A stretch of DNA of 64,000 nucleotides. Origin: Candidatus Cloacimonadota bacterium (lineage in GTDB: Bacteria > Cloacimonadota > Cloacimonadia > Cloacimonadales > Cloacimonadaceae). The stretch covers positions 1-64,000 of the forward strand of contig JAKOXG010000003.1 of NCBI GenBank assembly GCA_029781115.1, written 5' to 3'. This document shows, one piece after another, positions 744 to 61,648 of the stretch. Position 1 is the first letter of the stretch. Each line of letters starts with the position of its first letter. Both the position numbers and the translations under genes were made by a program. The notes under the pieces were generated by a model. That model did not search any database and was not told the DNA's origin. It worked only from the letters and a program-made list of their open reading frames with translations.

Positions 744-976
744 GCATCCCCGAAACCAGCGCAGCTGCTAACACCTAACACCTAACACCTGCGGCGAAGC
801 CGCCACTCACAACTGGCAACCTCCGGCTACAGGTGGGTCGCTATGGCAAGCGACCATACAGGGACGAGACTGTGGGAAAAGCCTTTCTGTAGCTGGTCTT
901 GCTTTTGCTCAGAGCATTCGCATCTCTAAACAAAGCGCAGCCCCTAACACCTAACACCTAAAACCTAAAACCTAAC
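744..976 (+). repeat. Two CTAACACC/CTAAAACC tracts, each led by an AACCAGCGCAGC-type motif
   Basis: At 744-790 and 920-976 the motif GAAACCAGCGCAGC (or a close variant) is followed directly by tandem 7-mers CTAACAC and CTAAAAC. The same two-part unit recurs on the plus strand at 42929-42978, 61081-61138 and 61474-61527 and on the minus strand at 29655-29708 and 42799-42862. The degenerate tandem part resembles slippage-prone sequence. The leader is conserved between copies, so this is a dispersed composite repeat and not simple low complexity. Confidence 0.65.
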
Positions 977-1051
977 CGACACAGTCGGTCCAAACACCTA
1001 CCATTTTAGTAGGAAATCCTCACCTACCTCCGGTACCGGAAAACCCAGGCC

Positions 1052-13269: not shown

Positions 13270-13818
13270 TTAGGGCTCAGTTGGCGGCGGAGGGTTGAAC
13301 TCCGGCGGCACGTCTTCCTCTTCTGCGGGCTCTTCCGGCTCCATCCTGTGCAGTTTATTCACCTCAAACAGCTCATCATACCTGGAATCTGCATAGAGCA
13401 CGCAGAGGCTGCCATCGCCCACAAAGAGCAGATGGGCACTACGATCCAGGTTGAAGACCCAGATCATCTGGTCTGTATCCTTATCATACATGGTGGGTTC
13501 TTTGTGCATGTCGGCCATGGTTCTGATCACCAGCTCGTTCATCTCATCGGTATTCTCAGCCCAATGCTTTACAAACCAACCTGCCACCGTCTTGGTATCG
13601 GGTTTGACAAACAGGATCACCGCCTCCACCATGGGGTCGTTTTTGGAGTAGTATTTCACCATATAACCATCTATCATACCCGCTTTGAAGCTGAACTGAG
13701 TGAGCAGTGAGTCAGCTTTATTGATGGGGTCGTCATATGAGATGTCAAAGAGCCCCTTTTGAGCGCTCAAGCTTATGCTAATTGCCACCAAGGCAAGGAG
13801 AAAGACATATCTTTTCAT
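13270..13818 (-). CDS. Secreted protein of unknown function with a proline-rich tail
   Basis: 182 residues beginning with a clear signal peptide (MKRYVFLLALVAISISLSAQ). The mature part has no motif that I recognise. It contains aspartate-rich turns and ends in an acidic and proline-rich tail (EEPAEEEDVPPEF, PPPPTEP). AGGAAACAACA precedes the ATG. It may be exported to the periplasm. It lies downstream of, and on the same strand as, the 5'-nucleotidase gene, but a hairpin in the 153-base gap suggests separate transcription. Confidence 0.65.
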   Translation of the reverse strand: MKRYVFLLALVAISISLSAQKGLFDISYDDPINKADSLLTQFSFKAGMIDGYMVKYYSKNDPMVEAVILFVKPDTKTVAGWFVKHWAENTDEMNELVIRTMADMHKEPTMYDKDTDQMIWVFNLDRSAHLLFVGDGSLCVLYADSRYDELFEVNKLHRMEPEEPAEEEDVPPEFNPPPPTEP

Positions 13819-13917
13819 TGTTGTTTCCTATCTTTTGTTGTGGACTGGGAACTCCCGAGCCCTGTAATCCTTAATACAAATCGCAACCGCTTTTCCTGCA
13901 TACTCTTTCACAAAGTC

Positions 13918-13944
13918 AAAGAGAAGAGCCAAGCCCTTCTCTTT
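13918..13944 (-). terminator. Hairpin after the 5'-nucleotidase gene
   Basis: AAAGAGAAG and CTTCTCTTT make a perfect 9-bp stem with a 9-base loop, 27 bases beyond the stop codon at 13972. The following U-tract is weak, so this could be a poor terminator or an mRNA-end stabiliser. Confidence 0.45.
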
Positions 13945-13971
13945 GTTATATGTTATACAGTCCAAAACGGT

Positions 13972-15630
13972 TTATTGCAGCATCTCCGCAGTAGGCTGAG
14001 CACCATCCTTGCGCTGCCATCTATCGTCGATCTTGGTCTTGATGGGGCTATTCTTGCGGAAGTAATTTACGATGGCATCACGCAGGTTTATCTCATGGCG
14101 GATGATATCCTCTTCCGGCACCTGCGTGAGCAGGGTGAGTCCAGCGTTTCCTTGCAGGAGGAAGTCTGTAGTTACGCAGGTGTAGATCTTGTTTTTATCC
14201 CAAGGTTCTCCACCTATTTTGAGGGATGTAACCCTGTCGAAATTGGGGCGTTTCTTGCTGTAGATCACGTTCACGCCGGAGACCACCAAGCCATGGCGAC
14301 CGCCTTCCACACGTGTTTCGATGATCCTGCGCAAAAACTCTCCCGTGCACCTGAAGGATACCAGCATGTTGTCAAAGGGCATCACCTCAAAGATGTTGCG
14401 GTAGGTGACGGGGCCGCTCTTGATGTCCGAGCGCACTCCACCCAGATTGAGGAAGGCAAAATCCGCATCCACTTCGTGCCGCATCGCATCAGTGATCGTG
14501 TTTCCCATCAGGCTTTGTGCATCCACGTTTATCCTGGAGAGATACACTGCGCTATGCCCCACGATCTCGTCCATGCCCTGTTCGGCGATGGCCACTTGTG
14601 CTTCGATGGTGGCGCCAATCTCGGGATCCGGGATAAACTGATCTTCAAAGAGCGTGATCATCATGCCTTCTCTTATGGCTGGCAATTCATAGCCGCAGAC
14701 GGTGCGGGTTTCGGGGTCGATAAGCAGCGTGATCCAGCCAAGGTTTGTGCCGTTGGCATAGCCTTGCACCACCAGGGTATGCGTGTATGGATCGACCCAG
14801 GGACCGGGGAAGCCTTTGTGGATATGACCGGCGATAAAGAAATCTATGCCGCTTACCTCGCGTGCCAGTTCCTGAGCGTCATAACCCCAGACAGCGTTAC
14901 GCTCCTCAAAGAGTGGCGTGCCTTTATTGTCGTAGCGGCTCAGATAGCCCGCCACGGGATCGTAGGGAATGCCTGCATGCCCGAGCACGATCACCACATC
15001 CGCCTTCTCTTCGGTGCGCACCACGTCCACCCAATGTTGCAGCACCTCTGCGCCTTCTATAAAATCAAAGTTCTTGATGTTTTCCGGGAAACTCATCAGC
15101 TTGGTATCCGTGGTGGTATAGCCAACCACGGCGATGCGCACTCCCAGGCGGTTGAACATGTAGTAAGGGTAGAGAAACCAGGGGATTTCGCCGGTGCGTT
15201 TGTCGATGATATTACAGCTCAAAAGCGGGAAATCTGCCAGACGCAGGGTCTCGACCAGTTCTTCGCCGGAGATGTCAAATTCGTGATTCCCGAGTGCCAG
15301 CGCATCATAGCCGATGGCGTTCATATATTCCACCACCGCACGTCCGTTGGTCACGGTTCCCACGGGTCTGCCCTGGAAGAAGTCGCCGGCATCCAAGAGC
15401 ATGTGGTCTCTGGTCTCATTTGCCAGCGAGCGCACGTGTTTGATCAGCGTGGCAGCCGATGCTGCACCTCCCAGTTGCGGCGGAAAATCAGGGTTCATGA
15501 AGGTGGCTTTGGTTCTGTCTATACCTCCATGAATGTCGTTTGTAAACATGATATCCAGCCTGAGGTTTTCCGCGCATGTAAGCACCGGAAAGACCAGGCA
15601 CAGGATGAGGATGAGTCTAAAGTGTTTCAT
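13972..15630 (-). CDS. Secreted 5'-nucleotidase / UDP-sugar hydrolase family protein
   Basis: 552 residues with a signal peptide (ending near LTCAEN). The metallophosphatase domain shows FTNDIHGG, LLDAGDFFQG, LGNHEFD, VLGHAG and AGHIHKG, all metal ligands present. The C-terminal 5'-nucleotidase domain follows from about residue 350 (NTITDAMR, LNLGGVRSDI, FEVMPFDNMLVSF). Members remove phosphate from extracellular nucleotides, and some also cleave UDP-sugars or act on other diesters. It starts six bases after the preceding barrel gene and probably forms an operon with it and the HhH-barrel gene, which would fit scavenging of nucleic acid derivatives. Confidence 0.9.
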   Translation of the reverse strand: MKHFRLILILCLVFPVLTCAENLRLDIMFTNDIHGGIDRTKATFMNPDFPPQLGGAASAATLIKHVRSLANETRDHMLLDAGDFFQGRPVGTVTNGRAVVEYMNAIGYDALALGNHEFDISGEELVETLRLADFPLLSCNIIDKRTGEIPWFLYPYYMFNRLGVRIAVVGYTTTDTKLMSFPENIKNFDFIEGAEVLQHWVDVVRTEEKADVVIVLGHAGIPYDPVAGYLSRYDNKGTPLFEERNAVWGYDAQELAREVSGIDFFIAGHIHKGFPGPWVDPYTHTLVVQGYANGTNLGWITLLIDPETRTVCGYELPAIREGMMITLFEDQFIPDPEIGATIEAQVAIAEQGMDEIVGHSAVYLSRINVDAQSLMGNTITDAMRHEVDADFAFLNLGGVRSDIKSGPVTYRNIFEVMPFDNMLVSFRCTGEFLRRIIETRVEGGRHGLVVSGVNVIYSKKRPNFDRVTSLKIGGEPWDKNKIYTCVTTDFLLQGNAGLTLLTQVPEEDIIRHEINLRDAIVNYFRKNSPIKTKIDDRWQRKDGAQPTAEMLQ

Positions 15631-15636
15631 GATGGC

Positions 15637-17073
15637 TTACCAGGTAAATGATAGAGCGGCTCTGAGTGTGATGTCGTTTTCTCTGATCTTATCCGGATTG
15701 CTCCAATCCCTATCTGCCAGATCGATGTAGGAATTTGGCCACAGGGCATAGGAGGAGCTGCCGCTGTATACTTTGTCGTTGTAATAGGAATCTTTGAAGA
15801 GGTCTTGTGCCTCATATTCACGCCAGCTATAGCCAAAGCCCAAGTCTACATCCATAAACTTGGTGATGGGGAAGCTGCTGCCTGCGGATACTTTGGGGGT
15901 GAGGATGCGTTTGAGGATCAAGCTGCCATCTGCTTCCACCTCTCTGAGATAGCTTTGTGTGGCAGAAAAGCCCAAGCGCAAAGGCAGACGGTTTTCCACC
16001 CAGTGTTCCACGCCGGCATAAAAGTTGAATTGATCGTCGTAGTGGTCTGAAATATCGCTAAATCTCACATACTCGAGGTCGAGATTGAGCCAGGTGCGCA
16101 TGATATTGCGCGGCTGATAGAGCACTCCCAGCCTGTAGGCGGAGGGGATGGTATACTCTTCATCTATCGGAGTGGTCTGATCCAATTCAGCTGTGTTGCG
16201 ATAGGCATCTTTATGTTCACGCGTGTTACCCGTTCTATCCAAAACCGCCATAGGCGTCATGGTTGCAGCCACGCCAAAGCGTTCGTTCATTCTGAAAGCC
16301 AGGCCGATCTTCATCTGCTCGCCTTTCAGCTCGGCGTCAGTGGTGAGGCTGTAGTTGGGCAGCACCTTATTAGGGTCATTCCCGGTGGCTTTGGCAAAGG
16401 TATCGATCGCCCACTGGCTCCAGCGGATCGTCTTGGCATATTCTTGTTTACCGTCCAGGAAGCCATATTGGAAGCCCACGTTGAGCTGCGTCACTTCACC
16501 AAAATCGTAGCCAAAGCAGAAGATGGCAGCCTTTTGATTCAGCGTGCCTCTGTTTTCGATGCGGTTGGTGGCCAGCTTTTCGGGGTAGCCGTCGTTATCG
16601 GTATTGCGGTTGTTGCGGATTTCCTCGATGTAGTCACCATCAAAGCTTAGCATGGGTGCGTAGAAACCGCCCAATCCGAGGCGGGCGCCACCCAGCTCAA
16701 AGGCTCCAAATCCTGCAGCCGCATAGTAGTCGTAAATATCGATATTGGAGGCATAGACAGCGTCATCAATATAGCTATCAAAGGAGTTGTATAGCGGTAT
16801 GTGGCGGTTGTCTTCATTGCGGTCCATCAGCATGGTTACGGCCACCCCCACCCTGGTTTTCATGAGTGTGAGGTTGGCGGGGTTTGATGCAATGCCAAAG
16901 GGACGCAGGTCGTTGAAAGTGCCTGCAGATCCCATGCCAAAATTGCGGGCATCATAGCCATTGATGGGATTGCCAAAATAATCATCGGTGATCGAGCTTG
17001 CCACCATCTGCACCGCCAAGACAGCCATGAGACAGACAAGCATCAGGTGTTTGAAATATTTATGGTTACGCAT
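15637..17073 (-). CDS. Predicted FadL/PorV-like outer-membrane barrel
   Basis: 478 residues with a signal peptide (cleavage near VQMVASS). The mature start resembles FadL/PorV proteins: YDARNFGMGSAGTF, then GIASNPANL. The remainder consists of alternating strands and ends in TLRAALSFTW, a typical C-terminal barrel strand with a final aromatic residue. The ATG at 17073 follows GGAGGAAT; the frame is open further upstream but this start alone has a ribosome site and signal peptide. The cargo is not known. It sits between the HhH-barrel protein and the 5'-nucleotidase. Confidence 0.8.
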   Translation of the reverse strand: MRNHKYFKHLMLVCLMAVLAVQMVASSITDDYFGNPINGYDARNFGMGSAGTFNDLRPFGIASNPANLTLMKTRVGVAVTMLMDRNEDNRHIPLYNSFDSYIDDAVYASNIDIYDYYAAAGFGAFELGGARLGLGGFYAPMLSFDGDYIEEIRNNRNTDNDGYPEKLATNRIENRGTLNQKAAIFCFGYDFGEVTQLNVGFQYGFLDGKQEYAKTIRWSQWAIDTFAKATGNDPNKVLPNYSLTTDAELKGEQMKIGLAFRMNERFGVAATMTPMAVLDRTGNTREHKDAYRNTAELDQTTPIDEEYTIPSAYRLGVLYQPRNIMRTWLNLDLEYVRFSDISDHYDDQFNFYAGVEHWVENRLPLRLGFSATQSYLREVEADGSLILKRILTPKVSAGSSFPITKFMDVDLGFGYSWREYEAQDLFKDSYYNDKVYSGSSSYALWPNSYIDLADRDWSNPDKIRENDITLRAALSFTW

Positions 17074-17083
17074 TATTCCTCCA

Positions 17084-19708
17084 TTAGAAACGGTAATCCA
17101 AGGATAGACGGATGGTATTTTCTTTGCGTTCCACTCTTGGGAAGTAGCTTTCTCCATCCACGGGAACGTTGTATTTGCGGATGGAGTATTCCTTTGTTTG
17201 ATAGGTCTTATTGCGGAATTTGATGCTGAGGTTCATGTTGTCTGAGATGCGGCTGTGCAGTGCCACCCAGGCTTTTGCGCCTTTGTCACCCATAAAGTCG
17301 ATCTCCATATCTTCCCAATCCCAGTGGGAGATACCGTGGCTGAACCAATAGATGAAAGAACCTTGCAGCTTCAGATTGTCGTTGAAATTGTGGGTATAGT
17401 TCACGCCTATGTAGTCTCCGGTCATCAGCGTCATAGCAGCAGCCATGGAGTTGTTCCCCGGCTGCGCCGGGTTGGTGAGCGAAGTGTAAGGCGGGCTGAG
17501 CACCGTGTTGTAACGATATTCAAACTCGAGGAAGTCACGGTTTGAGAGGAAAGTCCTGGCCACCAGAGTGTATTCATTGGTCTTGGATACTCCTCTTTCG
17601 GCCATATCGTCCATACGGTTCACCTGGTTTTTATATCTGAGGCGCAGGGCAAGCTGATAGAGCGGCCTGAACTCCAGTTCACTCTGGAATCTGGCGGTTT
17701 TGCGTCCATCTGTCTTGCGCTCAAAGAGGTCAAGATAGCTGCGCCCGATGGTGAAGAAGTTGTTGAATTTGTATCTGGTTTCAAAGTAGACACCGCGCTC
17801 AGGTTGAGCCTGTGTGCTGCCCAGATAGATATCTGAAAGCAGTGTATTGGTGAGCGTGTAGACGTTTTTCTCCAAGATGGTGTCGTCAAACTTCTCATGC
17901 TCACTGAAGGCGTTGCTGTAGGGATTGTCAAAACCTACGTCATAATCCCGATAGAGCGTGATGAAATACAGGTTGTCAAACAAGGTGTGAGCACTGACCA
18001 ACAGCGCATGCGGATCATCGCCCAGCTTGTAATCTTTGCCACTGACGGTCAGCTCGGCATATTCGCCTTGGATGCTGGTATTGCCGATCACGGTTCCACC
18101 GTCAAAGCCTATCACCCTGCGGTAGTCTCTCTCATATTGACCCGGCTTGTAAGTGCTGTAGAGGCCGGCAATTTCGGCATCCAACATCTTGAATTTGGGG
18201 TAGTAATAACTGTCTCTCACCAGGAGTGAGCGCAGGTCGTTGTATCCCGGCACCACAAAGTGGGCATCATCATATAGAGCGGTATAGGTGGTGAAACCCA
18301 ACCTGGTTCCGATCCAGGGATTTATCTGCAGGTGTGTGCCCCAAAGCTTTTCCCTGAAAGCATCTTTGCGATAGGCGAGGTTGATATATGGCACAGCGTA
18401 GACGCTACCGGAGGCAATCTCGGTATTGAACTTGGCCTCCGCCGCACGCATATCGTCATTATCAAAGCGGATGGTCGGCACCACATAGCTGAAGATCTTG
18501 TTTTTGCCGTTTACCTGGACGGGATCGCCACTTTGATCCACATAGACGATGGCGTCTTTATCATCCACGGAAGCCCAGGCGCTTGCCGTGAAGAGTGGAT
18601 GCGAGATCTCCAGCGCTCCACCTCGCAGCGCATATTCCTGCGTGCGGGAAAGGTCTGGAGTGATGCCCAGGATGCGTTTGCTAAAGCCAAATCCAGTCTT
18701 CCTGGCGCTGTAGTAATCCGTATTTTCCATCACCAAGCCTTCGCCATAGGTGGCTCGATAGTGACCCGCATACAGCTTCACGCGTGTGTTTTTGAGGAAG
18801 GGCAGCGAGTTGTTTTCATAGCCGGCGTAGTATTTGGAATCCTTGATGATCTCTTCAGCTGTCTTATCTTGAATCCCCCGCTCGCCTTTGCCGCTGTAGT
18901 TCATCCAGCCCAGCTTGAAGTTGTTGCCCCAGCGGGCACGCAGCTTCATCACGATATCTGGATCCACTTTGTCCAGGTTGAAGTGTCCCCAATAGCTGAG
19001 GTCTTTTTTGTGCGGGACGGTTATGCTGCTGTTGCCGTAACTGCTACGCAGGAAGGGCTCATGCAGCATGTCGTGGCTGCCTTCTTCAAAGTAGCGCGTA
19101 TAATATTGCAAAGAGGCATCAAAAAAGAGGCGGTCTTTCACCGGTGGCTCTTTGTAATACACGTAGTTGCGCAGGTTTGTATAACCGTAGTGAGTAAGCC
19201 CCACCGTGTTGCGGAGGTCTCTCATCTCAGCGATGGTATCCCCTCTGGCGGTGCGCTTGAGAATCGCTACGGCTTCCATGGCGGAGACGTTTGGCAAACT
19301 CACAAAATCATCAAAATGCATGCGGTTGACGTTGTGAGGCGTCATCAGATAATCCTCCCAAACATCCGCCATCCCTTCGGAAGCACCTTCATTGCTATCC
19401 AGACGCTCGATCAAGTAGCGAATCTCGTTTCTCCGAGCTTGCGCCTCGTCTGTCTGAATGTGCATTGAAACCACCACCTTGTCCTTGATCCGCAGCAGAG
19501 TCCGCTGATCAATGGAAGGAATCTGGCGTAGCTGGAAGATATCCGTGAACAGGCTCACGTAGTCCCGATATTCCAGGATGTCACGCGCTTGCTTCTCGGT
19601 CAAATTGAGCTGTCTCAATTCGTCGTAATCTGCCGTGTTGAGATCAACCTTGGCAGCGAGCAACCCCACGCATAAAAGCAGGGGCAGCAAGATCAGAAGT
19701 TTTCTCAT
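17084..19708 (-). CDS. Helix-hairpin-helix domains fused to a large predicted outer-membrane barrel
   Basis: An 874-residue exported protein. After the signal peptide (MRKLLILLPLLLCVGLLAAK), residues ~20-85 form a ComEA-like helix-hairpin-helix pair (VDLNTADYDELRQL, FQLRQIPSID). A second HhH-like segment follows near residues 105-160 (LMTPHNVNRMHFDDF, MRDLRNTVGL). From about residue 175 to the end the sequence is beta-strand rich and ends in IRLSLDYRF, the pattern of an outer-membrane barrel of 20 or more strands. ComEA-type HhH domains bind double-stranded DNA non-specifically, which makes a surface or periplasmic DNA-contact role possible. AAGGAAAAGCA precedes the start. It is first in an operon with a FadL-like barrel and a 5'-nucleotidase. 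Confidence 0.75.
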   Translation of the reverse strand: MRKLLILLPLLLCVGLLAAKVDLNTADYDELRQLNLTEKQARDILEYRDYVSLFTDIFQLRQIPSIDQRTLLRIKDKVVVSMHIQTDEAQARRNEIRYLIERLDSNEGASEGMADVWEDYLMTPHNVNRMHFDDFVSLPNVSAMEAVAILKRTARGDTIAEMRDLRNTVGLTHYGYTNLRNYVYYKEPPVKDRLFFDASLQYYTRYFEEGSHDMLHEPFLRSSYGNSSITVPHKKDLSYWGHFNLDKVDPDIVMKLRARWGNNFKLGWMNYSGKGERGIQDKTAEEIIKDSKYYAGYENNSLPFLKNTRVKLYAGHYRATYGEGLVMENTDYYSARKTGFGFSKRILGITPDLSRTQEYALRGGALEISHPLFTASAWASVDDKDAIVYVDQSGDPVQVNGKNKIFSYVVPTIRFDNDDMRAAEAKFNTEIASGSVYAVPYINLAYRKDAFREKLWGTHLQINPWIGTRLGFTTYTALYDDAHFVVPGYNDLRSLLVRDSYYYPKFKMLDAEIAGLYSTYKPGQYERDYRRVIGFDGGTVIGNTSIQGEYAELTVSGKDYKLGDDPHALLVSAHTLFDNLYFITLYRDYDVGFDNPYSNAFSEHEKFDDTILEKNVYTLTNTLLSDIYLGSTQAQPERGVYFETRYKFNNFFTIGRSYLDLFERKTDGRKTARFQSELEFRPLYQLALRLRYKNQVNRMDDMAERGVSKTNEYTLVARTFLSNRDFLEFEYRYNTVLSPPYTSLTNPAQPGNNSMAAAMTLMTGDYIGVNYTHNFNDNLKLQGSFIYWFSHGISHWDWEDMEIDFMGDKGAKAWVALHSRISDNMNLSIKFRNKTYQTKEYSIRKYNVPVDGESYFPRVERKENTIRLSLDYRF

Positions 19709-19972
19709 TGCTTTTCCTTGCAGTGCTTTATCACATTAAAATAGTCTAATTGTATCACTGATTGCCAGTGTATTTTTGCCCCTAAATCTGTAAAGTCTTT
19801 TTTTGAACTCAAAGCCAAGGAACCCCATTTTCAGCCCTTTTACAGCAATAAAAAAGAAATGCTTACACATCGAATGCAAGAATCTGGCTTTGGCACGCTA
19901 AAAACCCTTGCCAACCGTCAAATAATGATTACCATATATCCCACAACAAACTATCTCTGGAGGTTAATACGG

Positions 19973-22429
19973 ATGCCGAAATACCTGATCATAGGCGGAG
20001 TGGCAGGCGGTGCTTCTACCGCTGCCCGGCTCAGACGCCTGGACGAACAATCCCAAATCATCATGTTTGAACGCGGCGACTACATTTCCTACGCAAATTG
20101 TGGCCTGCCATACTACATCGGAGGCGTAATCACAGAGCGCGAGCGTCTCTTTGTGGAAACACCCGAAAGCTTCAAAGCCAAACTCAATGTGGACGTGCGC
20201 GTGCAGGAAGAGGTCACCTCTATCAACCGTGAGGCCAAAGAGGTTACCATCACACGCAGAGATGGCAGCACCTACACCGAAAGCTACGACAAGCTCATCC
20301 TGGCTCCCGGAGCGGAACCCTTAAGACCGCCCATCCCAGGCATTGACAACGAGCGAATCTTCACTCTGCGCAACGTTCATGATACCGATAAAATCAAAGC
20401 TTTTGTAGATAAGCACAATGTGCATCACGTGACCGTCGTGGGTGCAGGTTTCATCGGCCTGGAAATGGCGGAAAACATGCATCATCTTGGCATGAAGGTC
20501 ACCATCGTCGAGATGGCTGATCAGGTGATGGTGCCGCTCGATTTTGAGATGGCCGCCCCTGTGCATCAACACCTCAAGACCAAAAACGTGGAGCTTTACC
20601 TCAGCGATGGAGTGAAATCCTTTGCCAGCGAGAAGGATAAGCTCACAGTTACCTTGGGCAGCGGACGCTCCCTCACTACCGATATGGTGATCCTCTCCAT
20701 CGGCGTGCGTCCGGACAGCAAATTGGCTGCCGATGCCGGCCTGGAGCTGGGCATCAACCGCGGCATCAAGGTAAACGAATATCTGCAGACCAGCGATCCG
20801 GACATCTATGCCCTGGGCGACGCCGTGGTATTTACCCACCCCATCACCGGCGAGGAAGCCAATACCTACTTGGCTGGGCCGGCCAACAAACAGGGTCGCC
20901 TCTTGGCAGACAACCTGGCAAAGGGCAATGTGCGCAAATATAAAGGCAGCATCGCCACCGCAGTAGCCAAGGTTTTCGATCTCACCGTCGCCTCCACCGG
21001 AGTAAACGAAAAGACACTCAAGAAACTGGGTATCGCCCACGAGTCGGCCATCATCCATCCCGCCAATCATGCGGATTATTACCCGGACTCCTCGCCCCTA
21101 TCCCTCAAGATCATCTTTGATCCCAAAAGCGGCAAACTCTTGGGTGCTCAAGCCGTGGGTTATGATGGCGTGGACAAGCGCATCGACGTGCTGGCCAGCA
21201 TTATCACTCGCGGTGGAGATATCTGGGATATGCAGGATTTTGAACAAGCCTACGCACCTCCATTTTCCAGCGCCAAGGACCCCGTCAATATGGCCGCCTT
21301 GGTGGCAGAAAACATCATCAACGGCTTGGTGAAAGTCATCCATTGGCATCAAATCCCCGAGCTTGACCTAAACGAATATGCAATCATCGACGCCCGCACC
21401 CCTGAAGAATATCAGCTTGGCAACATCCCGGGCAGCGTCAATATCCCCTTGCAGCAGATCCGCAATCGCTTGGACGAAGTTCCCAAAGACAAAAAGATCG
21501 TGGTCAACTGTAAAACCGGAACACGCTCCTACTTTACCACAAGAATCCTGGTGCAAAACGGCTATCAGGAAGTCTACAACCTCAGCGGTGGCTATACCAC
21601 TTACAAGATGGTTAATCAAAAACAAAGCAATGAAGACATATTTGGAGACGATCAGATGAAGAGCGAAGACACCACCCCCAAAGCAAACACCCCCACTCCT
21701 GCGGGAGTCACCATAGAAGCGGATGCCTGTGGCCTGCAATGCCCCGGCCCCATCATGAAACTCAAGACAGAGATGGATAAACTCAATGATGGCGATATCC
21801 TCCGCATCACCGCCACCGATCCCGGCTTTGCCACCGACGCTCCCTCCTGGAGCAATGTCACCGGAAACAAGCTGCTCAGCCTGGAAACCAAAGGCAACAA
21901 GATCGTCGCCACCATCCAAAAAGGCGCAGCAGATCTCCCCGAAAAGAGCGCAGCTGCGGGCGATGACAAGACCTTCGTGGTCTTCAGCAACGACCTCGAC
22001 CGCATCCTGGCTGCCTTTGTGATCGCCAACGGAGCTGCCGCCCTGGGCAAGAAAGTGACCATGTTCTTCACCTTCTGGGGACTCACCGCCATCAAAAAAC
22101 CCAACGCCCCCAAGGTGGAGAAAGACGCAATGGCAAACATGTTTAGCATGATGCTGCCCAAGAGCTCACTGGGCTTGGGACTCTCCAAGATCAACTTCGG
22201 CGGCATGGGCCCCAAAATGATGCGCAAACGCATGAAAGACAAAAACGTAGACTCCATCGAAACCATGATCAAACAAGCCATCAAGGCCGGCGTAAAACTC
22301 ATCGCCTGCCAGATGAGCATGGACGTGATGGGTGTGAGCCCCGAAGAGCTCATCGATGGCGTAACCATCGGCGGCGTAGCTACCTACCTGGAAGCTGCCG
22401 AAAAGAGCAACGTAAACCTGTTCATCTGA
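19973..22429 (+). CDS. Four-domain CoA-disulfide reductase / rhodanese / TusA / DsrE fusion
   Basis: 818 residues. Residues 1-~450: FAD/NAD(P)H disulfide reductase of the CoA-disulfide reductase group, with GGVAGGASTAARLRR and the single redox cysteine C43 in YANCGLPYY. Residues ~460-550: rhodanese with IIDARTPEEY and active-site loop NCKTGTRS. Residues ~578-650: TusA/SirA-like with GLQCPGP. Residues ~665-818: DsrE/DsrF-like (FVVFSNDLDR). The order is that of a persulfide relay: reduction, sulfur transfer by rhodanese, TusA and DsrE. Such fusions occur in anaerobes handling polysulfide or CoA-persulfide. The ATG at 19973 follows GGAGG and gives the proper FAD motif. It is monocistronic with a strong terminator. 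Confidence 0.93.
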   Translation: MPKYLIIGGVAGGASTAARLRRLDEQSQIIMFERGDYISYANCGLPYYIGGVITERERLFVETPESFKAKLNVDVRVQEEVTSINREAKEVTITRRDGSTYTESYDKLILAPGAEPLRPPIPGIDNERIFTLRNVHDTDKIKAFVDKHNVHHVTVVGAGFIGLEMAENMHHLGMKVTIVEMADQVMVPLDFEMAAPVHQHLKTKNVELYLSDGVKSFASEKDKLTVTLGSGRSLTTDMVILSIGVRPDSKLAADAGLELGINRGIKVNEYLQTSDPDIYALGDAVVFTHPITGEEANTYLAGPANKQGRLLADNLAKGNVRKYKGSIATAVAKVFDLTVASTGVNEKTLKKLGIAHESAIIHPANHADYYPDSSPLSLKIIFDPKSGKLLGAQAVGYDGVDKRIDVLASIITRGGDIWDMQDFEQAYAPPFSSAKDPVNMAALVAENIINGLVKVIHWHQIPELDLNEYAIIDARTPEEYQLGNIPGSVNIPLQQIRNRLDEVPKDKKIVVNCKTGTRSYFTTRILVQNGYQEVYNLSGGYTTYKMVNQKQSNEDIFGDDQMKSEDTTPKANTPTPAGVTIEADACGLQCPGPIMKLKTEMDKLNDGDILRITATDPGFATDAPSWSNVTGNKLLSLETKGNKIVATIQKGAADLPEKSAAAGDDKTFVVFSNDLDRILAAFVIANGAAALGKKVTMFFTFWGLTAIKKPNAPKVEKDAMANMFSMMLPKSSLGLGLSKINFGGMGPKMMRKRMKDKNVDSIETMIKQAIKAGVKLIACQMSMDVMGVSPEELIDGVTIGGVATYLEAAEKSNVNLFI

Positions 22430-42800: not shown

Positions 42801-42896
42801 GGTTCCTAGGTTTTAGGTGTTAGATGTTAGGTGTTAGGGCTGACGCAGGTTTCGGAGCTTAGTGTGTTTTCTCGGGAAGCGAGATCATGTGAGGTT

Positions 42897-44355: not shown

Positions 44356-44382
44356 ATGTTTGGGAGCCTGATATATGCGTAA
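44356..44382 (+). CDS. Nine-codon upstream ORF overlapping the M6-like gene
   Basis: ATG at 44356 has the best ribosome site of the region (AAAGGAG, 8 bases upstream). The frame reads MFGSLIYA and stops with TAA at 44380-44382, seven bases inside the M6-like gene whose ATG is at 44375. The M6-like start has its own weaker site, TGGGAG. This arrangement would allow translational coupling or a leader-peptide control. There is no other evidence that it is translated. Confidence 0.4.
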   Translation: MFGSLIYA

Positions 44383-47300
44383 CTACAGATCAATCATAGC
44401 CGCAGCTCTGCTGAGCTTGATGGCTTGCTCTGCATTGGCTTTGGTGCCCGCACATCCCATGTATCGCCAAGTTCCGGCTGCCTGGTCTGCATCCAATCTG
44501 GAGCTTTCGCAGCGCGGGCTGAAGGGCTGGGGCAGAAACCAGAGCGAGATCCCCAACAACATCCTGGTTTTGAGGGTGGAATTTAGCGATGTCACCTTCA
44601 TCTCAGAACCTCAATATCCGGATTATCTGGCACATGATGATGCGTTCTTTGAGCGCTGGATGCTGCATCTGGGCGATTTCTATGCCGATGCCTCGCACTA
44701 TCAATATGAGCTGCAACATTATCTCTACCCGCAGGTGATCCGGCTAAACAAGCCTATGAGCTATTATGGAGGCGATTCCTCCTCCAAGATAGATGTGCGC
44801 GTGGCACAGATGGTCAAGGATGCGGTCGATGCTATTGATGAGGATTTGGACTTCACTCAGTATGGAGGCATGATCGTCTTTCATGCGGGCGCAGGTCAGG
44901 AATCGGATATTGAAGGCAAGCGCACGGATCAGATCTGGAGCACCTTCCTTTCACGCAAGAGTTTTCAGGCGGCATTTGATCCTGAAAACGACGACTACCC
45001 CGGGCTGGTGACCGATGACGGTGCCGTGCTTACCAATATCGTGATAGTGCCCGAGCATGAATTTCAGGACTACTTCCCGGGCGAAGACGATCCGGATGCA
45101 GGTGTGTATCACTTTAGCTTGTATGGAGTTTTGGCACATCAATTTGGGCATGTCTTGGGTCTGCCCACCCTGTTTGACAACGATAGCTCCAATGGCACTT
45201 CACAGGGTATAGGAAATTGGGGTTTGATGGGCACAGGTGTTTGGAATGCCAGCGGTTACGTCCCTGCTCAGTTGAGTGCTTTCAGCAGAGTGTTTATGGG
45301 TTGGGAAGAGCCCATTGTGATCGAAGATGACGCTGTCGACCTGCAGGTGGATCACTTTTTGGAACACGACCCCGAGGCGATGCGGGTCTACAAGCTACCC
45401 ATCTCCGAAACCGAGTATTTCCTGATCGAAAACAGGCAGCAAAACCCCGATGGCAGCCTCGATCCCTACAACTATCAACCCAGCTACACCTTCAAGCTTT
45501 TGGCAGAGGGCGAGCAGGATTATTACGAAGAACTTCCACTGCTGCCTTACTTTAACTTTATGAAAAACCGCTATGTGGGCTCTGAATGGGACTTCTTTTT
45601 GCCGGGGCTGGGCGGGCCGCTTGCACCGGGTAAACCTTTCCCGGATGATGGTTCCGGCCTCTTGATCTGGCACATCGATGAACGGATCATAGAGCAAAAC
45701 TTCACGCCCAATTTTGATCGAAATCGTATCAACGCCGATGCCAGGCATAAGGGTGTGGATTTGGAGGAGGCAGACGGCATTCAGCATCTTGATACAGCCC
45801 TGGTAGACATCTACAAATGGGGCAGCCCCTTTGACTCTTACAGAGCAGGCAACAACGACTACTTTGGCCATTCCATCCACAATGGACTCATGCATCTTCC
45901 CAGTGCAGAAAGCTATTATGGCGGCACTCCTCTGGAGGTTTACGATATCAGCTACAGCAGGAACAGGATGAGCTTCAGTGTGAGCTTCGGGTGGAAGCTG
46001 ACCACCGATTACGATGGAGTCACGCCCTTCAACGCTGCCTTTGTAGACCTCGATCAGGACGGCGAAGATGAGCTGTTTATGGCTTTGCCGGACGGTCAGC
46101 TGTATGCTTGGAAAGATGAAGCACCCATGGCCGGATTTCCCAGACATGCCACTCCCGTGGCGCAAAACTTCGTCTGGGATGGCGAATACGTCTATCTGCC
46201 CATGCAGGTTCCGGGCGGTATCCGCTTGCACCGCATGAATGCAGAAGGTGGCACATACGTGCTCAATAAAGCGGGTCGCACCTGGGCTTCGCATCCCGTG
46301 AGTGTGGGCAGCAAACTCTATCTGCCCCTCAATACACCCGGCGGGTCTGAACTGCTGATCTATGATAAAGAGCTGAAGAATACACAGCAGCTCCATGAAT
46401 TTTCTGAGCCGATAAGCTCAAACGTGGTAGGCTTCCGTCAACATCTCTTCCTCCTCACTAAAGAAGAAGGAGCCTACCACTCTCTTTGGAAGATGGACAT
46501 TCAATCCAAATCCATCACCGATATTACGCTGGACATCCCCGCAGACTCCACCATCGTGGCCATGGCTATGGCACCCATCACTACCGATATCAACCAGATC
46601 AACCTCATCATCCAAGGCTTGAGCAGCATCTACGTCTATGATGAAGAGTTTCAGCTTTTGCCCGGCTTCCCCTACATCCATGATCACACCTGCACTGCGC
46701 CACTAACCCTGGCTGATATGGATGGCAACGGCACGCTGGACATCATCTTGGGCTGTGAAAACGGCGTGCTGGTGGTGGACTATTCCGGGCAGAATATGAG
46801 TCCTCCGGTCTTGGCAGGCGAAAGCGATGCAGCAGGTGGTTTCAGTGCGGGAGCCATTGCGCTGGATATCGATGGTGACGGCAGAAAGGAGCTTTTGGGC
46901 AGCTTTGCCTTAAATCAGTTGAGAGTGTGGGACGATAGTTTCAGGCTCAAGAGAGGCTTCCCGGTCTCTTTTGCCGAACGCAGCCGCACCATACCTCTTC
47001 TGGCACGGGCATCCGATGGCGATTGCTACATCTGGTCTGCCACGGATAATGGCAAGGTCTTCCGCACCATGATCGGCAACCTGCCCGCTACGACTGGCAA
47101 CCTCTGGCTGCATGAATTTGGCAATCTGGAGCGCAATGCCAGCCTGGATCCCCCGGCTTTGCCCAATAGCTACACTTCAGATACGTTCTTTGTGCCTGGC
47201 GAGGTCTACCTCTTCCCCATTCCGGTAAAATCCATCTACGACAAAGTGCTCACGCTCAACGTGATGACCAGCCAAGATGCGCTGCTGGAGGCATCCATCT

Positions 47301-47470
47301 ATGATGCAGGCGGCAAGCTGATCTACAGGCAAAAGCATCAGGTGAGCGCTTATGTGAGAAATAGAGAAAGTTTTAGCTTCCCGGTGGAGCGTTTGGGCTC
47401 CGGAGTATACTTTATGGTAGTGAAAGCAGGGAAGCACTCAAAGACCCTCAAATTTATCGTGGAAAACTAA
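44375..47470 (+). CDS. M6-like secreted protein with HQxxH in the zinc site and type IX sorting domain
   Basis: 1031 residues. Signal peptide 1-~24. The M6-like domain spans about 60-480. The zinc motif reads AHQFGHVLGLPTLFD, with H255, Q256, H259: the catalytic glutamate is glutamine (codon CAA at 45140). The rest of the M6 pattern (GIGNWGLMGTGVW, LLIWHIDERII) is intact. From about 540 there are FG-GAP/VCBS-like propeller repeats (DLDQDGEDELF, DMDGNGTLDIILG, DIDGDGRKELLG). The last ~85 residues are a sorting domain (LFPIPVKS, SIYDAGGKLIYRQ, LGSGVYFMVV). It is probably a surface-exported pseudo-protease or a binding protein. It heads an operon with a PorV/PorQ-like protein and a subtilase. 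Confidence 0.88.
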   Translation: MRNYRSIIAAALLSLMACSALALVPAHPMYRQVPAAWSASNLELSQRGLKGWGRNQSEIPNNILVLRVEFSDVTFISEPQYPDYLAHDDAFFERWMLHLGDFYADASHYQYELQHYLYPQVIRLNKPMSYYGGDSSSKIDVRVAQMVKDAVDAIDEDLDFTQYGGMIVFHAGAGQESDIEGKRTDQIWSTFLSRKSFQAAFDPENDDYPGLVTDDGAVLTNIVIVPEHEFQDYFPGEDDPDAGVYHFSLYGVLAHQFGHVLGLPTLFDNDSSNGTSQGIGNWGLMGTGVWNASGYVPAQLSAFSRVFMGWEEPIVIEDDAVDLQVDHFLEHDPEAMRVYKLPISETEYFLIENRQQNPDGSLDPYNYQPSYTFKLLAEGEQDYYEELPLLPYFNFMKNRYVGSEWDFFLPGLGGPLAPGKPFPDDGSGLLIWHIDERIIEQNFTPNFDRNRINADARHKGVDLEEADGIQHLDTALVDIYKWGSPFDSYRAGNNDYFGHSIHNGLMHLPSAESYYGGTPLEVYDISYSRNRMSFSVSFGWKLTTDYDGVTPFNAAFVDLDQDGEDELFMALPDGQLYAWKDEAPMAGFPRHATPVAQNFVWDGEYVYLPMQVPGGIRLHRMNAEGGTYVLNKAGRTWASHPVSVGSKLYLPLNTPGGSELLIYDKELKNTQQLHEFSEPISSNVVGFRQHLFLLTKEEGAYHSLWKMDIQSKSITDITLDIPADSTIVAMAMAPITTDINQINLIIQGLSSIYVYDEEFQLLPGFPYIHDHTCTAPLTLADMDGNGTLDIILGCENGVLVVDYSGQNMSPPVLAGESDAAGGFSAGAIALDIDGDGRKELLGSFALNQLRVWDDSFRLKRGFPVSFAERSRTIPLLARASDGDCYIWSATDNGKVFRTMIGNLPATTGNLWLHEFGNLERNASLDPPALPNSYTSDTFFVPGEVYLFPIPVKSIYDKVLTLNVMTSQDALLEASIYDAGGKLIYRQKHQVSAYVRNRESFSFPVERLGSGVYFMVVKAGKHSKTLKFIVEN

Positions 47471-47482
47471 GTGGAGAACATC

Positions 47483-48388
47483 ATGAAACTCTCTAAAATC
47501 ATCTTCCTGGCAATGCTGTTAAGTGTTGCCGTCAGCTGCTTTGCACTCCATCCGGATGCGGGTGAATATAGCTATCAATTCCTCAATGTGCAAGGCGATC
47601 CCGCCATGATGGCTTTAGGTGGCAGAGGCGTGCATTCTCTGATGACCGAAGCTGCCTTTTCCCTGCAACCGGCTATCGGTGCGGTGAAAACGCATCAAAG
47701 CGTGGGTGTATCCTATACAGCATGGCTGGATGACAGCAGCTTCAACCAGATCTATTATACTTCTTCGGATAGATTCAGTCACTTTGGTGTCGTGCTGCGC
47801 AACCTGGATTTTGGCAAGGTGGAAAGCAGGGATGACACAGGCGTGTTTCTGGGATACTACCATCCCCAAGATGTGAGCGTGATGGGAAATTATGCCCGCC
47901 GCATCACACCCAGCCTCTATGCGGGTGCAAACCTGGGAGTGCTCTATGAGAAGCTGGCAACCGCGTCATCAATCGGTCTCCACTCGGATTTGGGCATCAC
48001 CTACCTGCCGCCCATCCACAACAGCAGCCTTTCAATGACCGTGCGCAACCTGGGCTTGGCTACCAAAGTCAACGAGCAGAGCAGTAAACTGCCGATTTCC
48101 TTTGAAGCAGACCTGGGCAAGCACTGGGAGTTTGAAAACGCCTCCTTTGGCTTGGAAGTAGCGGCTGTGAAAGCGATGGACGAGCATCTCAAGTTCTCTG
48201 TGGCCAACCAGATAACGGTGATGGACATTCTCTACCTGCGTGGCGCATACAAGATCAAGCAGGAACCGAAATCCTTGAGCGCAGGCTTGGGTATCAAGCT
48301 GCGAAATTTGAATATAGACTATGCATGGACAGACTTCAGCTCCGGACTCAACGACGTGCATAGCTTTGGCATCAAATGGAACTTTTAG
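47483..48388 (+). CDS. PorV/PorQ-like outer-membrane protein
   Basis: 301 residues with a signal peptide (ending near VSCFALHPD). The mature start, SYQFLNVQGDPAMMALGGRGVHSLM, has the PorQ/PorV pattern of FLNVPGDARxxALGG. The rest is beta-strand rich and ends DVHSFGIKWNF with a terminal aromatic. PorV and PorQ belong to the type IX secretion shuttle and attachment complex. I chose ATG 47483 over an in-frame GTG at 47471 because GTGGAGAACATC before it serves as the ribosome site. It sits between two genes for sorting-domain proteins, which suggests a dedicated partner. Confidence 0.85.
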   Translation: MKLSKIIFLAMLLSVAVSCFALHPDAGEYSYQFLNVQGDPAMMALGGRGVHSLMTEAAFSLQPAIGAVKTHQSVGVSYTAWLDDSSFNQIYYTSSDRFSHFGVVLRNLDFGKVESRDDTGVFLGYYHPQDVSVMGNYARRITPSLYAGANLGVLYEKLATASSIGLHSDLGITYLPPIHNSSLSMTVRNLGLATKVNEQSSKLPISFEADLGKHWEFENASFGLEVAAVKAMDEHLKFSVANQITVMDILYLRGAYKIKQEPKSLSAGLGIKLRNLNIDYAWTDFSSGLNDVHSFGIKWNF

Positions 48389-48403
48389 GTTAAAGATATA
48401 TAG

Positions 48404-51400
48404 ATGAAAAAAGCGGCATTGCTCCTGATACTGACAGTCTTGATTGCGTCTGCCATGGCTATGGATATCACGCCAAGGCAATTGATATTCAAGACTTCCC
48501 AGCCGGCACAAGTGCTTAGAAACGGGCGCATCGGCCTCAGTGCATTCGATAATTACCTCGACACCTTGGGTGCCCAGAGCGTCAGACAGATCACCGGCAT
48601 GCCCGGCAACCAATACTTCATGGTGGATTTGGCTCAGGAACCGGATTATAATGCGCTCACCTCCGGCAAACTGCGCTTTGATGGCATTGAGTATGTGCAG
48701 CCAAACTACATCAATAAGATGTATATCGAGCCCAACGACCCTCTCTATGGCCAGCTCTATCACTATGTGGTTTCCTGCCCGCAGGCTTGGAATATCACCA
48801 CCGGAAGCGACCAGGTGCTGGTGGCTCTGGTGGACTCCGGCATCAATTTCGAGCATCCAGACCTCATCCCCAATATCTATATCAATCCCGGTGAAATACC
48901 CGATAACGGCATCGATGACGATGGCAATGGATATATCGACGATTGGTGCGGCTGGGACTTTGTGCATGCACCGGAACTGGCGGATATCGCACTGGGAGAC
49001 TATCTGGAGCAAGACAACGACCCCACCGACGAAAACTATCACGGCACCCACTGTGCCGGCATCATCGGTGCAGTTGGAAACAACGGCATCGGCGTCTGTG
49101 GTGTGAATTGGAACGTGAAGCTGCTTGCCGTGAGAGCCGGTTTTAGAACCGTCTCCGGAGACGGCTTCCTGCAGGATGATGACTGCGCTGCGGGCATTGT
49201 CTATGCGGCGGATATGGGAGCGCAGGTGATCAATCTGAGCTGGGGCGACAACGTGTATTCCCCCATCATCGCTGATGCCTGCCAATATGCCTACAACAAA
49301 GGCGCAATACTGGTGGCTGCTGCGGGCAACACGCCGCTTCCTTACTTGAGTTATCCCGCCAAATTGGGAACCACCATCAGCGTGGCCGCCGTGAACCGCA
49401 ACCGCAATATCGCCGGTTTTTCCAGCTTTGGGCCGGATCTTGACCTCGTGGCACCCGGCGAAGAAGTGCTCAGCACCTATGAAGCGAAAGCTCCAAACCA
49501 ATATGTCCGCATGAGCGGAACTTCCATGGCTGCGCCCTATGTGACCGGCGCCATTGCTCTGCTTTTGGGGCTCAATCCGGGCTTGAGCCAGCATGAAGTG
49601 AGGTCTCGCCTCCTGGACTCCTGCGATGATCTGGGCACACCCGGCTACGACATGTATTACGGACACGGGCTCCTCAATGTGCGCAAGCTCTTGGAAAGCA
49701 CCAATCCACCGCTCATCCACGTCGCCTCGCCGCTGGAAATGCAGGGAATGGACGGCAGCTTTGACATCACCGGCAGCATCCAGGCGGATGACTTCTTCCG
49801 CTATAGCGTGATGTATGCCATCAAAGACGTCCCTGCCACCATCATCGACTGGCTGGACGTTCAGACTCATACCAACCAACCAAACTACCTGACCAACCCT
49901 GTGGATAACGGCGTCCTGGCTCAATTTTATATACCCGATTTCTTTGAGGAAAGAACCTATCTGGTGCGCATCCAATACGAAAACAAGCAGGGCAAAAAGT
50001 ATAACAAATACTTCAACTTCCGCTACGATAAAACCGCTCCCCAGATGAAAGAGGGGACCCTGGAATCTCACTTCCGCTATGATAAGCATGAGAAGCGCTA
50101 CTACGTGACCGCAGCCTTCGATGAAACAGTATCCGCCAGGTTGAAGATTTGGGACTCGCTGGGTCAGATCAGCTATTGCTACAGCGCCATCGAGGATACC
50201 CTCGTCTTTTGGGCTTTGCCAAAGACTCTCGCCGAAGGGAAGATCAAGGTGCAAGTCCAAGCGCACAACTCCTCCGGCCTCAGCTATGAATCGGAGGCTG
50301 TTGAAAACTTCCTGGATATCCGGTATGAGATGGTGGGCGATCACGATTATGAATATGAAGTGGTAGGCCCGGCACGGGTAGCTTTGCCCAAGCTCTTTGA
50401 TTTTGATGGTGATGGAAACGAGGAATACATCGCCATGACACTCACCACCAGCGGCTATGGAAACGTCCAGGTTTACCAACCCGCTGCGGGACCACACATC
50501 GTGACCCACGATTTTCAGGATGGCTTCCGACCCTTGGGAATTACCACCGGAAGCAACGGCAAGCCCGAACTGATCTACAATAAAGCCGATACAGTCCGCC
50601 TGCAGATCTGCCCAGCAGATAGCGACTATCCAAACCTCGCCATCTGGGAAGAATCAGCCAGCATCAGCGGTGCCTATGGTGACTACGATGGAGACGGTGT
50701 AGACGATATCCTCTTGATCAAAAACTTGGCGCTTGAGCAGGTGATTCAAGTTTTCAAAAGAGGGCAAGACGCAGTGATTATGCCCAAAAACATCCTGCAA
50801 AACACCACTGCCACCACTACGAGAAACTCCTTCGTGCCCACCATCATCGTGGAAGACCTCGATGGAGACCGCTTCCCGGACATCCTGTGCGCTGACGCAG
50901 ATGGCGACGTGATGATCTATGAGATCAAGAGCGACCAATTGGCCGAACTCAGCTGGCATCACCGCCTTCCCGTGCGGGATACACACACCTTCACCGTGGG
51001 CGATTTTGATGGAGACGGACGCAAGGAATTCTTCATCGGTGGCTATATAACTGACGTGGCCAACCCCTACCGTAACTTCTGGTTCTTTGAAGGCTTTAAG
51101 AGCACCGGAAACAATACCTACACCTCCATGGGCAGCATATTTTTCAACAACGTGATGCAACAGAATGGCATCAACACCATGGATATAGACGGTGACGGCG
51201 CCGATGAGATCATCCTCGGCATCAACCCAAACTTATATGTAATCAAGTATGTAAATGGCGAATTCAAACCCATCTTCAGAAGCGAATGCAGCCGCAGCTA
51301 TGGCATCCTCACCTATAGAGACAGCAACAACCGCCCCTATTTCGCCACCAACAAGAGCATCGAAGACTCGCTCTACTACGTCCAATACTCACCGGCAGCG

Positions 51401-60823: not shown

Positions 60824-60947
60824 TTCTTTCCACGGATGAATACGGATGGAAATAAAAGTCCACGAATTGACACGAATTATGGAGTGTAGGGGCGGTCGCG
60901 GTGCCTGCGGCAAGGTGTTAGGTGTTAGGCTTTAGGTGTTAGTTTGC

Positions 60948-60998
60948 GGCGGTTTGGCAACCGCCGGCTACAAGAGAAGGTCGCTATGGCAAGTGACC
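60948..60998. repeat. Two hairpin repeats in tandem
   Basis: GGCGGT-N6-ACCGCC (60948-60965), then GGCTACAAGAGAA, then GGTCGCT-N6-AGTGACC (60979-60998, one G-T or mismatch pair), then ATACA. A similar pair is at 22500-22544. Confidence 0.65.
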
Positions 60999-61144
60999 AT
61001 ACATCTCCCATCCGTGATCATCCGTGTGCATCCGTGGGAAAACAAAGAGCTTCAGAGCCGCGCGTATTCCAGGAAAGAGCATACGTATCTCTGAAACCAG
61101 CGCAGCCCTAACACCTAAAACCTAAAACCTAACACCTCGCCAAA

Positions 61145-61288
61145 GGCCCCTCTATAATATACACTGACGATCTCACCTCGACGCAAAAAAACCAAAAAAA
61201 TAATCCCGTAACACCTTGGCACTTATACCTATACAAAACGGGCAAATATTATCACACTCTGATGGAAAGTGAAATACCAGGAGACTCC
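61145..61288 (-). repeat. ~145-bp repeat, copy 2 (inverted)
   Basis: Reverse complement matches 30046-30190, with CCTCTATAATATACACTGAC at the left (the best conserved block), a run of A in the middle and GAAATACC at the right. Confidence 0.55.
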
Positions 61289-61648
61289 TAACACCTAAAA
61301 CCCAAAATCTGCGGCGAAGCCGCCCCATCCGTGAAATTCATGTAATTCGTGGGGAAACACATAGCCTGGAACCATATGGATCGCAGCAAAGAATACGCCC
61401 AGCCCAGCATGACCTACCCCTTAATTCCTATTCATCCGTGAAATCCGTGTATATCCGTGGAAAAATCAGAAAGCCCCAGAGCCAGCGCAGCTCCTAAAAC
61501 CTAACACCTAACACCTAAAACCTAAAAAAGTCATTGACAATTACCAAGGGTCACCAAAAGCTTAGACTCAGCACTGCGTTGATAGGAACACCGCCCGCCT
61601 GATAAGCACCTATCCCTTTGCCAGTATGGATTATAGGAAAGCTCAAGC

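What the first reader, a model, noticed from the sequence alone, without database searches (positions are those of the whole stretch)
17084..19708. DNA-binding HhH domains joined to a large outer-membrane barrel, in an operon with a 5'-nucleotidase
Two HhH segments of ComEA type at the N-terminus of a protein whose remaining ~700 residues look like a barrel would place a DNA-binding unit at the outer membrane. The operon also has a second barrel and a nucleotide phosphatase. A DNA-scavenging or uptake system is a reasonable hypothesis; direct proof is absent.
Basis: partly seen in the sequence, partly recalled or inferred. Interest (0 to 1): 0.6.

Follow-up and report, generated by a model that had tools for sequence, protein, structure and literature searches.

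The report
Conserved five-gene outer-membrane nucleic-acid locus
The protein is real and belongs to an undescribed set of five genes, kept together across many bacterial phyla, that builds a large outer-membrane barrel complex which probably handles nucleic acid or nucleotides, but its helix-hairpin-helix units have lost the residues that normally grip DNA.

Summary
In detail: an 874-aa protein with a signal peptide, two HhH units (residues 20-82 and 126-186) and a predicted barrel of about 24 strands, in a tight operon with a 14-strand FadL-type barrel and a 5'-nucleotidase-superfamily enzyme. The genome is a Cloacimonadota MAG.

The three-gene cassette occurs in 47 of 62 related Cloacimonadota loci; most of the rest end at contig edges. 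In other phyla, and in another Cloacimonadota lineage, it is the 3' part of a five-gene locus. The two extra genes encode a secreted protein (OB-fold, LTD and DUF5689 domains in varying combinations) with an unusual type IX-like tail, and a small PorV/PorQ-like barrel. In the window genome these two lie on contig C13. The C13 protein resembles the OB part of ExeM/NucH DNases without their catalytic domain.

Nucleic-acid links recur: ComEC nearby in two distant genomes (in one the genes overlap), and a deoxynucleoside kinase and a purine nucleoside phosphorylase elsewhere. But the G-h-G hairpins are missing (1 intact among roughly 290), and the lysine ComEA needs is glutamine in 39 of 40. The genome also has a PilQ-type secretin, ComEA and ComEC.

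DNA binding by this HhH is therefore not supported. A nucleic-acid or nucleotide role for the locus is likely, not proven.

The parts
17084..19708 (-). HhH-barrel gene, 874 aa: signal peptide, two HhH units, ~24-strand outer-membrane barrel
19463..19651 (-). HhH unit 1 (residues 20-82), hairpins LNLTEKQA and IPSIDQRT, no G-h-G
   Evidence: Pfam HHH_3 43.4 bits; residue counts in 40 homologues
19151..19333 (-). HhH unit 2 (residues 126-186), hairpins LPNVSAME and VGLTHYGY, degenerate
   Evidence: alignment with homologues in which Pfam detects it
17087..19141 (-). predicted barrel domain (residues ~190-874), C-terminal YRF
   Evidence: AlphaFold2 model, C-terminal aromatic in 39/40
15637..17073 (-). 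FadL/BamG-like 14-strand barrel, 478 aa (true start probably 17073, not 17157)
   Evidence: BamG 49.3 bits, below cut-off 250; pLDDT 87.8; FadL, TodX and BamG structures
13972..15630 (-). 5'-nucleotidase-superfamily phosphohydrolase, 552 aa, with signal peptide
13917..13945 (-). 10-bp inverted repeat CAAAGAGAAG...CTTCTCTTTG just after the nucleotidase; possible operon end (inference)
   Evidence: sequence read; no long T tract, and the 9-nt loop is outside the scan

Best explanation
The gene is the core of a conserved five-gene outer-membrane system. Shown by sequence: (1) a secreted protein, with an OB fold in most loci, carrying a type IX-like C-terminal tail of an unusual type (ending PIVVGTxL or similar); (2) a small PorV/PorQ-like barrel; (3) the HhH-fronted large barrel; (4) a FadL/BamG-like barrel; (5) a secreted 5'-nucleotidase-family enzyme with an intact metal site. 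Inferred mechanism: protein 1 is exported by the type IX system and held at the surface by its own shuttle, protein 2. It binds extracellular nucleic acid (OB fold) next to the large barrel. Fragments or nucleotides enter through the large barrel, whose HhH units act as a plug or as a periplasmic docking domain rather than as a classical DNA clamp. The nucleotidase removes phosphate in the periplasm so that nucleosides can be salvaged. The FadL-like barrel is a structural partner or second conduit. That these genes form one system is about 90% likely, a nucleic-acid or nucleotide role about 50%, DNA binding by this HhH about 15%.
For: The cassette order is kept in 47 of 62 Cloacimonadota loci while outer neighbours change. 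Among 32 loci from other phyla, 26 have the tail protein then the PorV-like gene immediately upstream, about 25 the FadL-like gene downstream and 16 also the nucleotidase. The full set sits in one run in Cloacimonadota G109 and G111. In the window genome the first two genes are on C13, and the tail protein is found in 44 of 44 family genomes. The C13 protein matches the OB part of ExeM/NucH DNases (NF033681 positions 1-145, 52.7 bits) without the catalytic part; related proteins carry tRNA_anti OB, LTD and DUF5689 domains. The ExeM OB-like region is needed for nuclease activity (PMC6085458), and a DUF5689 protein is among the genes essential for transformation in Riemerella (PMC8459023). ComEC is two genes downstream in G314 and overlaps the barrel gene in G182. 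A deoxynucleoside kinase precedes the barrel gene in G309. A purine nucleoside phosphorylase lies near the C13 pair in several genomes. Nucleotidase metal ligands and base-stacking F419/F490 are conserved. A type IX sortase is present.
Against: HhH hairpins lack G-h-G and the region is not basic. OB folds also bind sugars and proteins. The ExeM match is far below the family cut-off. The ribose-binding Asp of CD73 is mostly Ala here (45 of 58), so the substrate may not be an ordinary ribonucleotide. ComEC, kinase and phosphorylase linkages are single cases or housekeeping neighbours. The genome has its own PilM-Q/PilB/C-type cluster, ComEA and ComEC, so DNA entry does not require this barrel. 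No nuclease is linked in the window.
Confidence: 0.5

Rival explanations
1. A dedicated surface-display complex of the type IX system: PorV/PorQ-like, FadL/BamG-like and the large barrel export, anchor or fold one surface protein. Its OB domain binds sugar or protein, and the nucleotidase-like enzyme acts on another phosphate ester, such as a UDP-sugar.
For: Unusual tail always next to its own PorV-like gene. In Flavobacterium johnsoniae type B tails need cognate shuttle barrels encoded next door (PMC12618676). FadL-type BamG anchors a surface lipoprotein in Bacteroidota BAM (PMC12611786; fold match). UshA-family enzymes include UDP-sugar hydrolases. HhH without G-h-G suits a protein-docking role.
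Against: Does not explain the recurrent nucleic-acid domains of the surface protein, or the ComEC linkages.
Confidence: 0.25
2. Outer-membrane gate for DNA in transformation: the barrel passes DNA to periplasmic ComEA and to ComEC.
For: Barrel and ComEC genes overlap in the complete genome G182 and are near each other in G314. The surface partner shares domains with a Riemerella transformation protein.
Against: The HhH protein essential in Riemerella has three HhH (HhH at 236-301) and fits the small HhH proteins (319 and 364 aa, one GIG hairpin each) that G309 and G182 hold besides the barrel, not the barrel. The barrel HhH lacks the DNA grip. The window genome has a PilQ-type secretin.
Confidence: 0.12
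3. Accessory outer-membrane protein assembly factor, the FadL-like gene being a BamG paralogue.
For: Fold and weak sequence match to BamG.
Against: A better BamG candidate lies at C1:87648-88787 (130 against 46 bits). Nucleotidase and OB protein do not fit.
Confidence: 0.06
4. Uptake of a hydrophobic or other small nutrient through the FadL-like barrel, with the large barrel as a porin.
For: Best structural matches of the FadL-like model are FadL and TodX transporters.
Against: Does not account for the OB surface protein or the nucleotidase.
Confidence: 0.07

Closest known systems
ComEA (competence HhH DNA receptor)
   Same: Same HhH_3 fold; position of ComEA R71 kept as R48 (40/40)
   Different: Joined to a barrel; no G-h-G; K63 position is Q; scores 23.7-24.5 bits against ComEA cut-offs of 152 and 53
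ExeM/NucH/Xds extracellular DNases (LTD + OB + EEP)
   Same: The surface partner has the OB and, in other phyla, LTD parts
   Different: No catalytic EEP domain found; separate outer-membrane partners
Type IX substrate plus cognate shuttle pairs (type B tail + PorP/SprF; PorZ + PorQ)
   Same: Tail protein adjacent to a small FadL-fold barrel
   Different: Different tail ending and PorV/PorQ-like rather than PorP-like shuttle; joined to a large HhH barrel and a nucleotidase
BamG / FadL / TodX
   Same: 14-strand fold with an N-terminal tail
   Different: Below the BamG cut-off (49.3 against 250 bits) and in a different gene setting
UshA / CD73 5'-nucleotidases
   Same: Metal ligands and base-stacking aromatics
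   Different: CD73 Asp506 (ribose contact) is mostly Ala; below the UshA equivalog cut-off

Membership tests
ComEA DNA receptor | HHH_3 domain above Pfam cut-off | tested here: met
   43.4 bits vs 27
ComEA DNA receptor | G-h-G hairpins and the DNA-contacting lysine (K63 of V. cholerae) | tested here: not met
   0 of 4 hairpins; K63 position is Q in 39/40
ComEA DNA receptor | score above TIGR00426 / TIGR01259 cut-offs | tested here: not met
   24.5 vs 53.1; 23.7 vs 152
ComEA DNA receptor | binds DNA in vitro or in vivo | not testable with these tools
   needs a binding assay
Outer-membrane beta-barrel | signal peptide, amphipathic strands, C-terminal aromatic, predicted barrel | tested here: met
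   closure not checked on coordinates
TonB-dependent receptor | TonB plug and barrel Pfam domains | tested here: not met
   no such match in 40 homologues
FadL family | 14-strand FadL fold | tested here: met
   14 strands, Foldseek E 1e-17 to 1e-14, TM up to 0.72 by target length
BamG | NF053685 above cut-off | tested here: not met
   49.3 vs 250; better candidate elsewhere in the genome
5'-nucleotidase superfamily | Metallophos and 5_nucleotid_C domains, metal ligands | tested here: met
UshA/CD73 nucleotide specificity | ribose-binding Asp (CD73 Asp506) | tested here: not met
   Ala in 45/58; base clamp F419/F490 kept
PorV/PorQ family (partner on C13) | NF033709 above cut-off | tested here: inconclusive
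   83.9 in the window genome and 89.3 in G111, cut-off 90
ExeM/NucH nuclease (partner on C13) | EEP catalytic domain | tested here: not met
   only profile positions 1-145 of 546 matched

The most novel reading that the evidence does not exclude
The five-gene locus is an outer-membrane DNA (or nucleic-acid) import gate, old and widespread in the Bacteroidota-Cloacimonadota part of the tree and beyond, and the missing outer-membrane step of pilus-independent DNA uptake there. A type IX-exported OB protein captures DNA, a 24-strand barrel with an HhH plug passes it, and ComEC or periplasmic salvage takes over.
Probability: 0.15. Interest if true: 0.9.

Novelty: new variant of a known kind. Interest (0 to 1): 0.62.

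Why it matters
The screen in Riemerella left the outer-membrane DNA channel of Bacteroidota as a speculative model (PMC8459023). A barrel with HhH units, translationally coupled to ComEC in one probable Bacteroidota genome and tied elsewhere to an OB surface protein and a nucleotidase, is a concrete candidate for outer-membrane handling of DNA or nucleotides. Even if it only scavenges nucleotides, it would be a conserved, undescribed outer-membrane nutrient system. I found no paper describing the locus.

Tried and rejected
HhH as a canonical DNA clamp: rejected on hairpin counts. TonB-dependent receptor and SusC: no domain match. FadL-like gene as the BamG orthologue: rejected. The 182-aa gene downstream (13270-13818) as part of the operon: rejected, seen only in two close relatives and separated by an inverted repeat. 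Defence system: no PADLOC match. Riemerella RA0C_RS02645 as a homologue of the barrel: rejected, it resembles the three-HhH small proteins. phmmer against PDB sequences for the barrel: only a weak hit to the HhH of EEPD1. My worry that a base-stacking Phe of the nucleotidase was lost proved wrong once it was aligned to UshA and CD73.

Full report
What is there. The ORF at 17084-19708 on the minus strand encodes 874 aa. Pfam finds one HHH_3 domain at residues 19-78 (43.4 bits, cut-off 27) and nothing in the remaining 790 residues. All 40 aligned homologues carry HHH_3 and none matches a known barrel family above cut-off. A second HhH unit at 126-186 is below threshold here, but Pfam detects it in homologues from other phyla and it aligns in nearly all. 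AlphaFold2 on 40 sequences gives pLDDT 79 and pTM 0.75: helices to residue 180, then about 24-25 long strands. Foldseek returns large barrels (FimD, MtrB, TonB-dependent receptors) with low TM-scores, so no specific structural relative. The chain ends in F or Y in 39 of 40 homologues.

Operon. The FadL-like gene starts 11 nt after the barrel stop behind a GGAGG, and the nucleotidase starts about 6 nt after the next stop. The FadL-like model has 14 strands at pLDDT 87.8 and matches FadL, TodX and BamG structures. It is not the BamG orthologue: 49.3 bits against a cut-off of 250, and a better candidate (130 bits) lies elsewhere in the genome. The nucleotidase keeps every metal ligand (D32, H34, D83, N115, H218, H269 and H271 in at least 57 of 58 sequences) and both base-stacking aromatics (F419 in 58/58, F490 as F or Y in 58/58). 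The position of CD73 Asp506, which contacts the ribose (PMC8677862), is Ala in 45 of 58. Its real substrate is therefore open.

Conservation. A scan of 84,980 species genomes returned 62 loci, nearly all Cloacimonadota. The FadL-like gene follows in 56 of them and the nucleotidase in 47. Five of the six loci without the FadL-like gene end at a contig edge; L047 is the real exception. The genes around the cassette differ between genera. By whole-genome search the barrel, or its HhH part, is found in 78 of 92 high-quality relatives (weak matches to HhH alone are included in that tally). Full-length relatives occur in about 25 families of other phyla.

The locus is larger than the window shows. 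In 26 of 32 loci from other phyla, two genes precede the barrel gene: a secreted protein ending in an unusual type IX-like tail (PIVVGTxL or similar), then a small PorV/PorQ-like barrel. The same five genes run together in the Cloacimonadota genomes G109 and G111. In the window's own genome these two genes sit together on contig C13. The tail protein is present in 44 of 44 genomes of the family. So the window holds three fifths of a system whose other part has moved.

What the surface protein says about function. In other phyla it carries OB-fold, Lamin Tail and DUF5689 domains in varying combinations. The 479-aa protein of the window genome matches the OB part of ExeM/NucH extracellular DNases (positions 1-145 of 546, 52.7 bits, cut-off 300) and lacks the catalytic part. 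Deleting the matching region of ExeM abolishes nearly all nuclease activity (PMC6085458). A DUF5689 protein is one of the genes without which Riemerella anatipestifer is not transformable (PMC8459023). The genome encodes a type IX sortase above cut-off, and in Flavobacterium johnsoniae tail proteins pair with shuttle barrels encoded next door (PMC12618676).

Links to DNA. In G314, comEC lies two genes downstream of the FadL-like gene. In G309 a deoxynucleoside kinase precedes the barrel gene. Near the C13 pair lies a purine nucleoside phosphorylase, in a housekeeping neighbourhood. Each alone is weak; together they lean one way.

The HhH units are not DNA clamps of the known kind. In V. cholerae ComEA, K63 and an unperturbed GIG hairpin are needed for DNA binding (PMC3879209). 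In the barrel family hairpin 1 is one residue shorter and reads LPI(T/S); the K63 position is Q in 39 of 40; hairpin 2 is PSID. Over 74 barrels I found one intact G-h-G among the HhH hairpins, in L104 (two other regex matches lay outside the HhH units, and a few sequences, such as L092 and the second units of L109 and L110, did not align). Net charge is slightly negative. The separate ComEA-like protein on C15 has GIG in all four hairpins. A PilM/N/O/Q and PilB/C-type cluster on the same contig and a ComEC on C10 show that the genome has the usual set for DNA entry without this barrel. The HhH fold is conserved (57% identity to the window sequence in unit 1, 66% in unit 2, 62% in the barrel), so it has a function, more likely docking or plugging.

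Conclusion. Shown: one conserved five-gene outer-membrane locus with two FadL-type barrels, one large HhH barrel, a type IX-tailed surface protein and a secreted nucleotidase-family enzyme. Inferred: capture and processing of nucleic acid or nucleotides. Not supported: DNA binding by this HhH domain. The main rival is a surface-display complex with no nucleic-acid role. The counts of loci depend on contig lengths and on homologues chosen by their similarity to the barrel; co-occurrence was not tested against a phylogenetic null.

Noticed in passing
window 767-1003, 29658, 42811-42838, 60916-61527: Short tandem arrays of the heptamer CCTAACA (and CCTAAAA) scattered over the window on both strands: 21 matches to two units with up to 2 mismatches, 0.12 expected in shuffles. 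Function unknown.
   Followed up: partly
window 44375-52579: A PorV-like gene (47471-48388) lies between two large secreted proteins that look like a peptidase and a subtilase with type IX-like tails, a second tail-protein/shuttle neighbourhood in the same window.
   Followed up: no
window 19859-22429: Divergent neighbour: a large protein that looks like a CoA-disulfide reductase fused to rhodanese, TusA-like and DsrE-like parts (read from sequence only).
   Followed up: no
L079 4832-6369: In G127 two genes, one confirmed as a CAP/SCP-domain secreted protein, are inserted between the FadL-like gene and the nucleotidase.
   Followed up: no
L110 2220-2783: A small secreted protein with a phospholipase-D-type HxK motif (possible nuclease) lies upstream of the locus in G314.
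   Followed up: no
G000:C1:87648-88787 (L125 7589-8866): Best BamG candidate of this Cloacimonadota genome, 130 bits, below the Bacteroidota cut-off of 250.
   Followed up: no
L216 and L217: Probable Bacteroidota genomes also carry 319-364 aa proteins with about three HhH units, only the middle one keeping GIG; they look like the transformation-essential HhH protein of Riemerella.
   Followed up: partly
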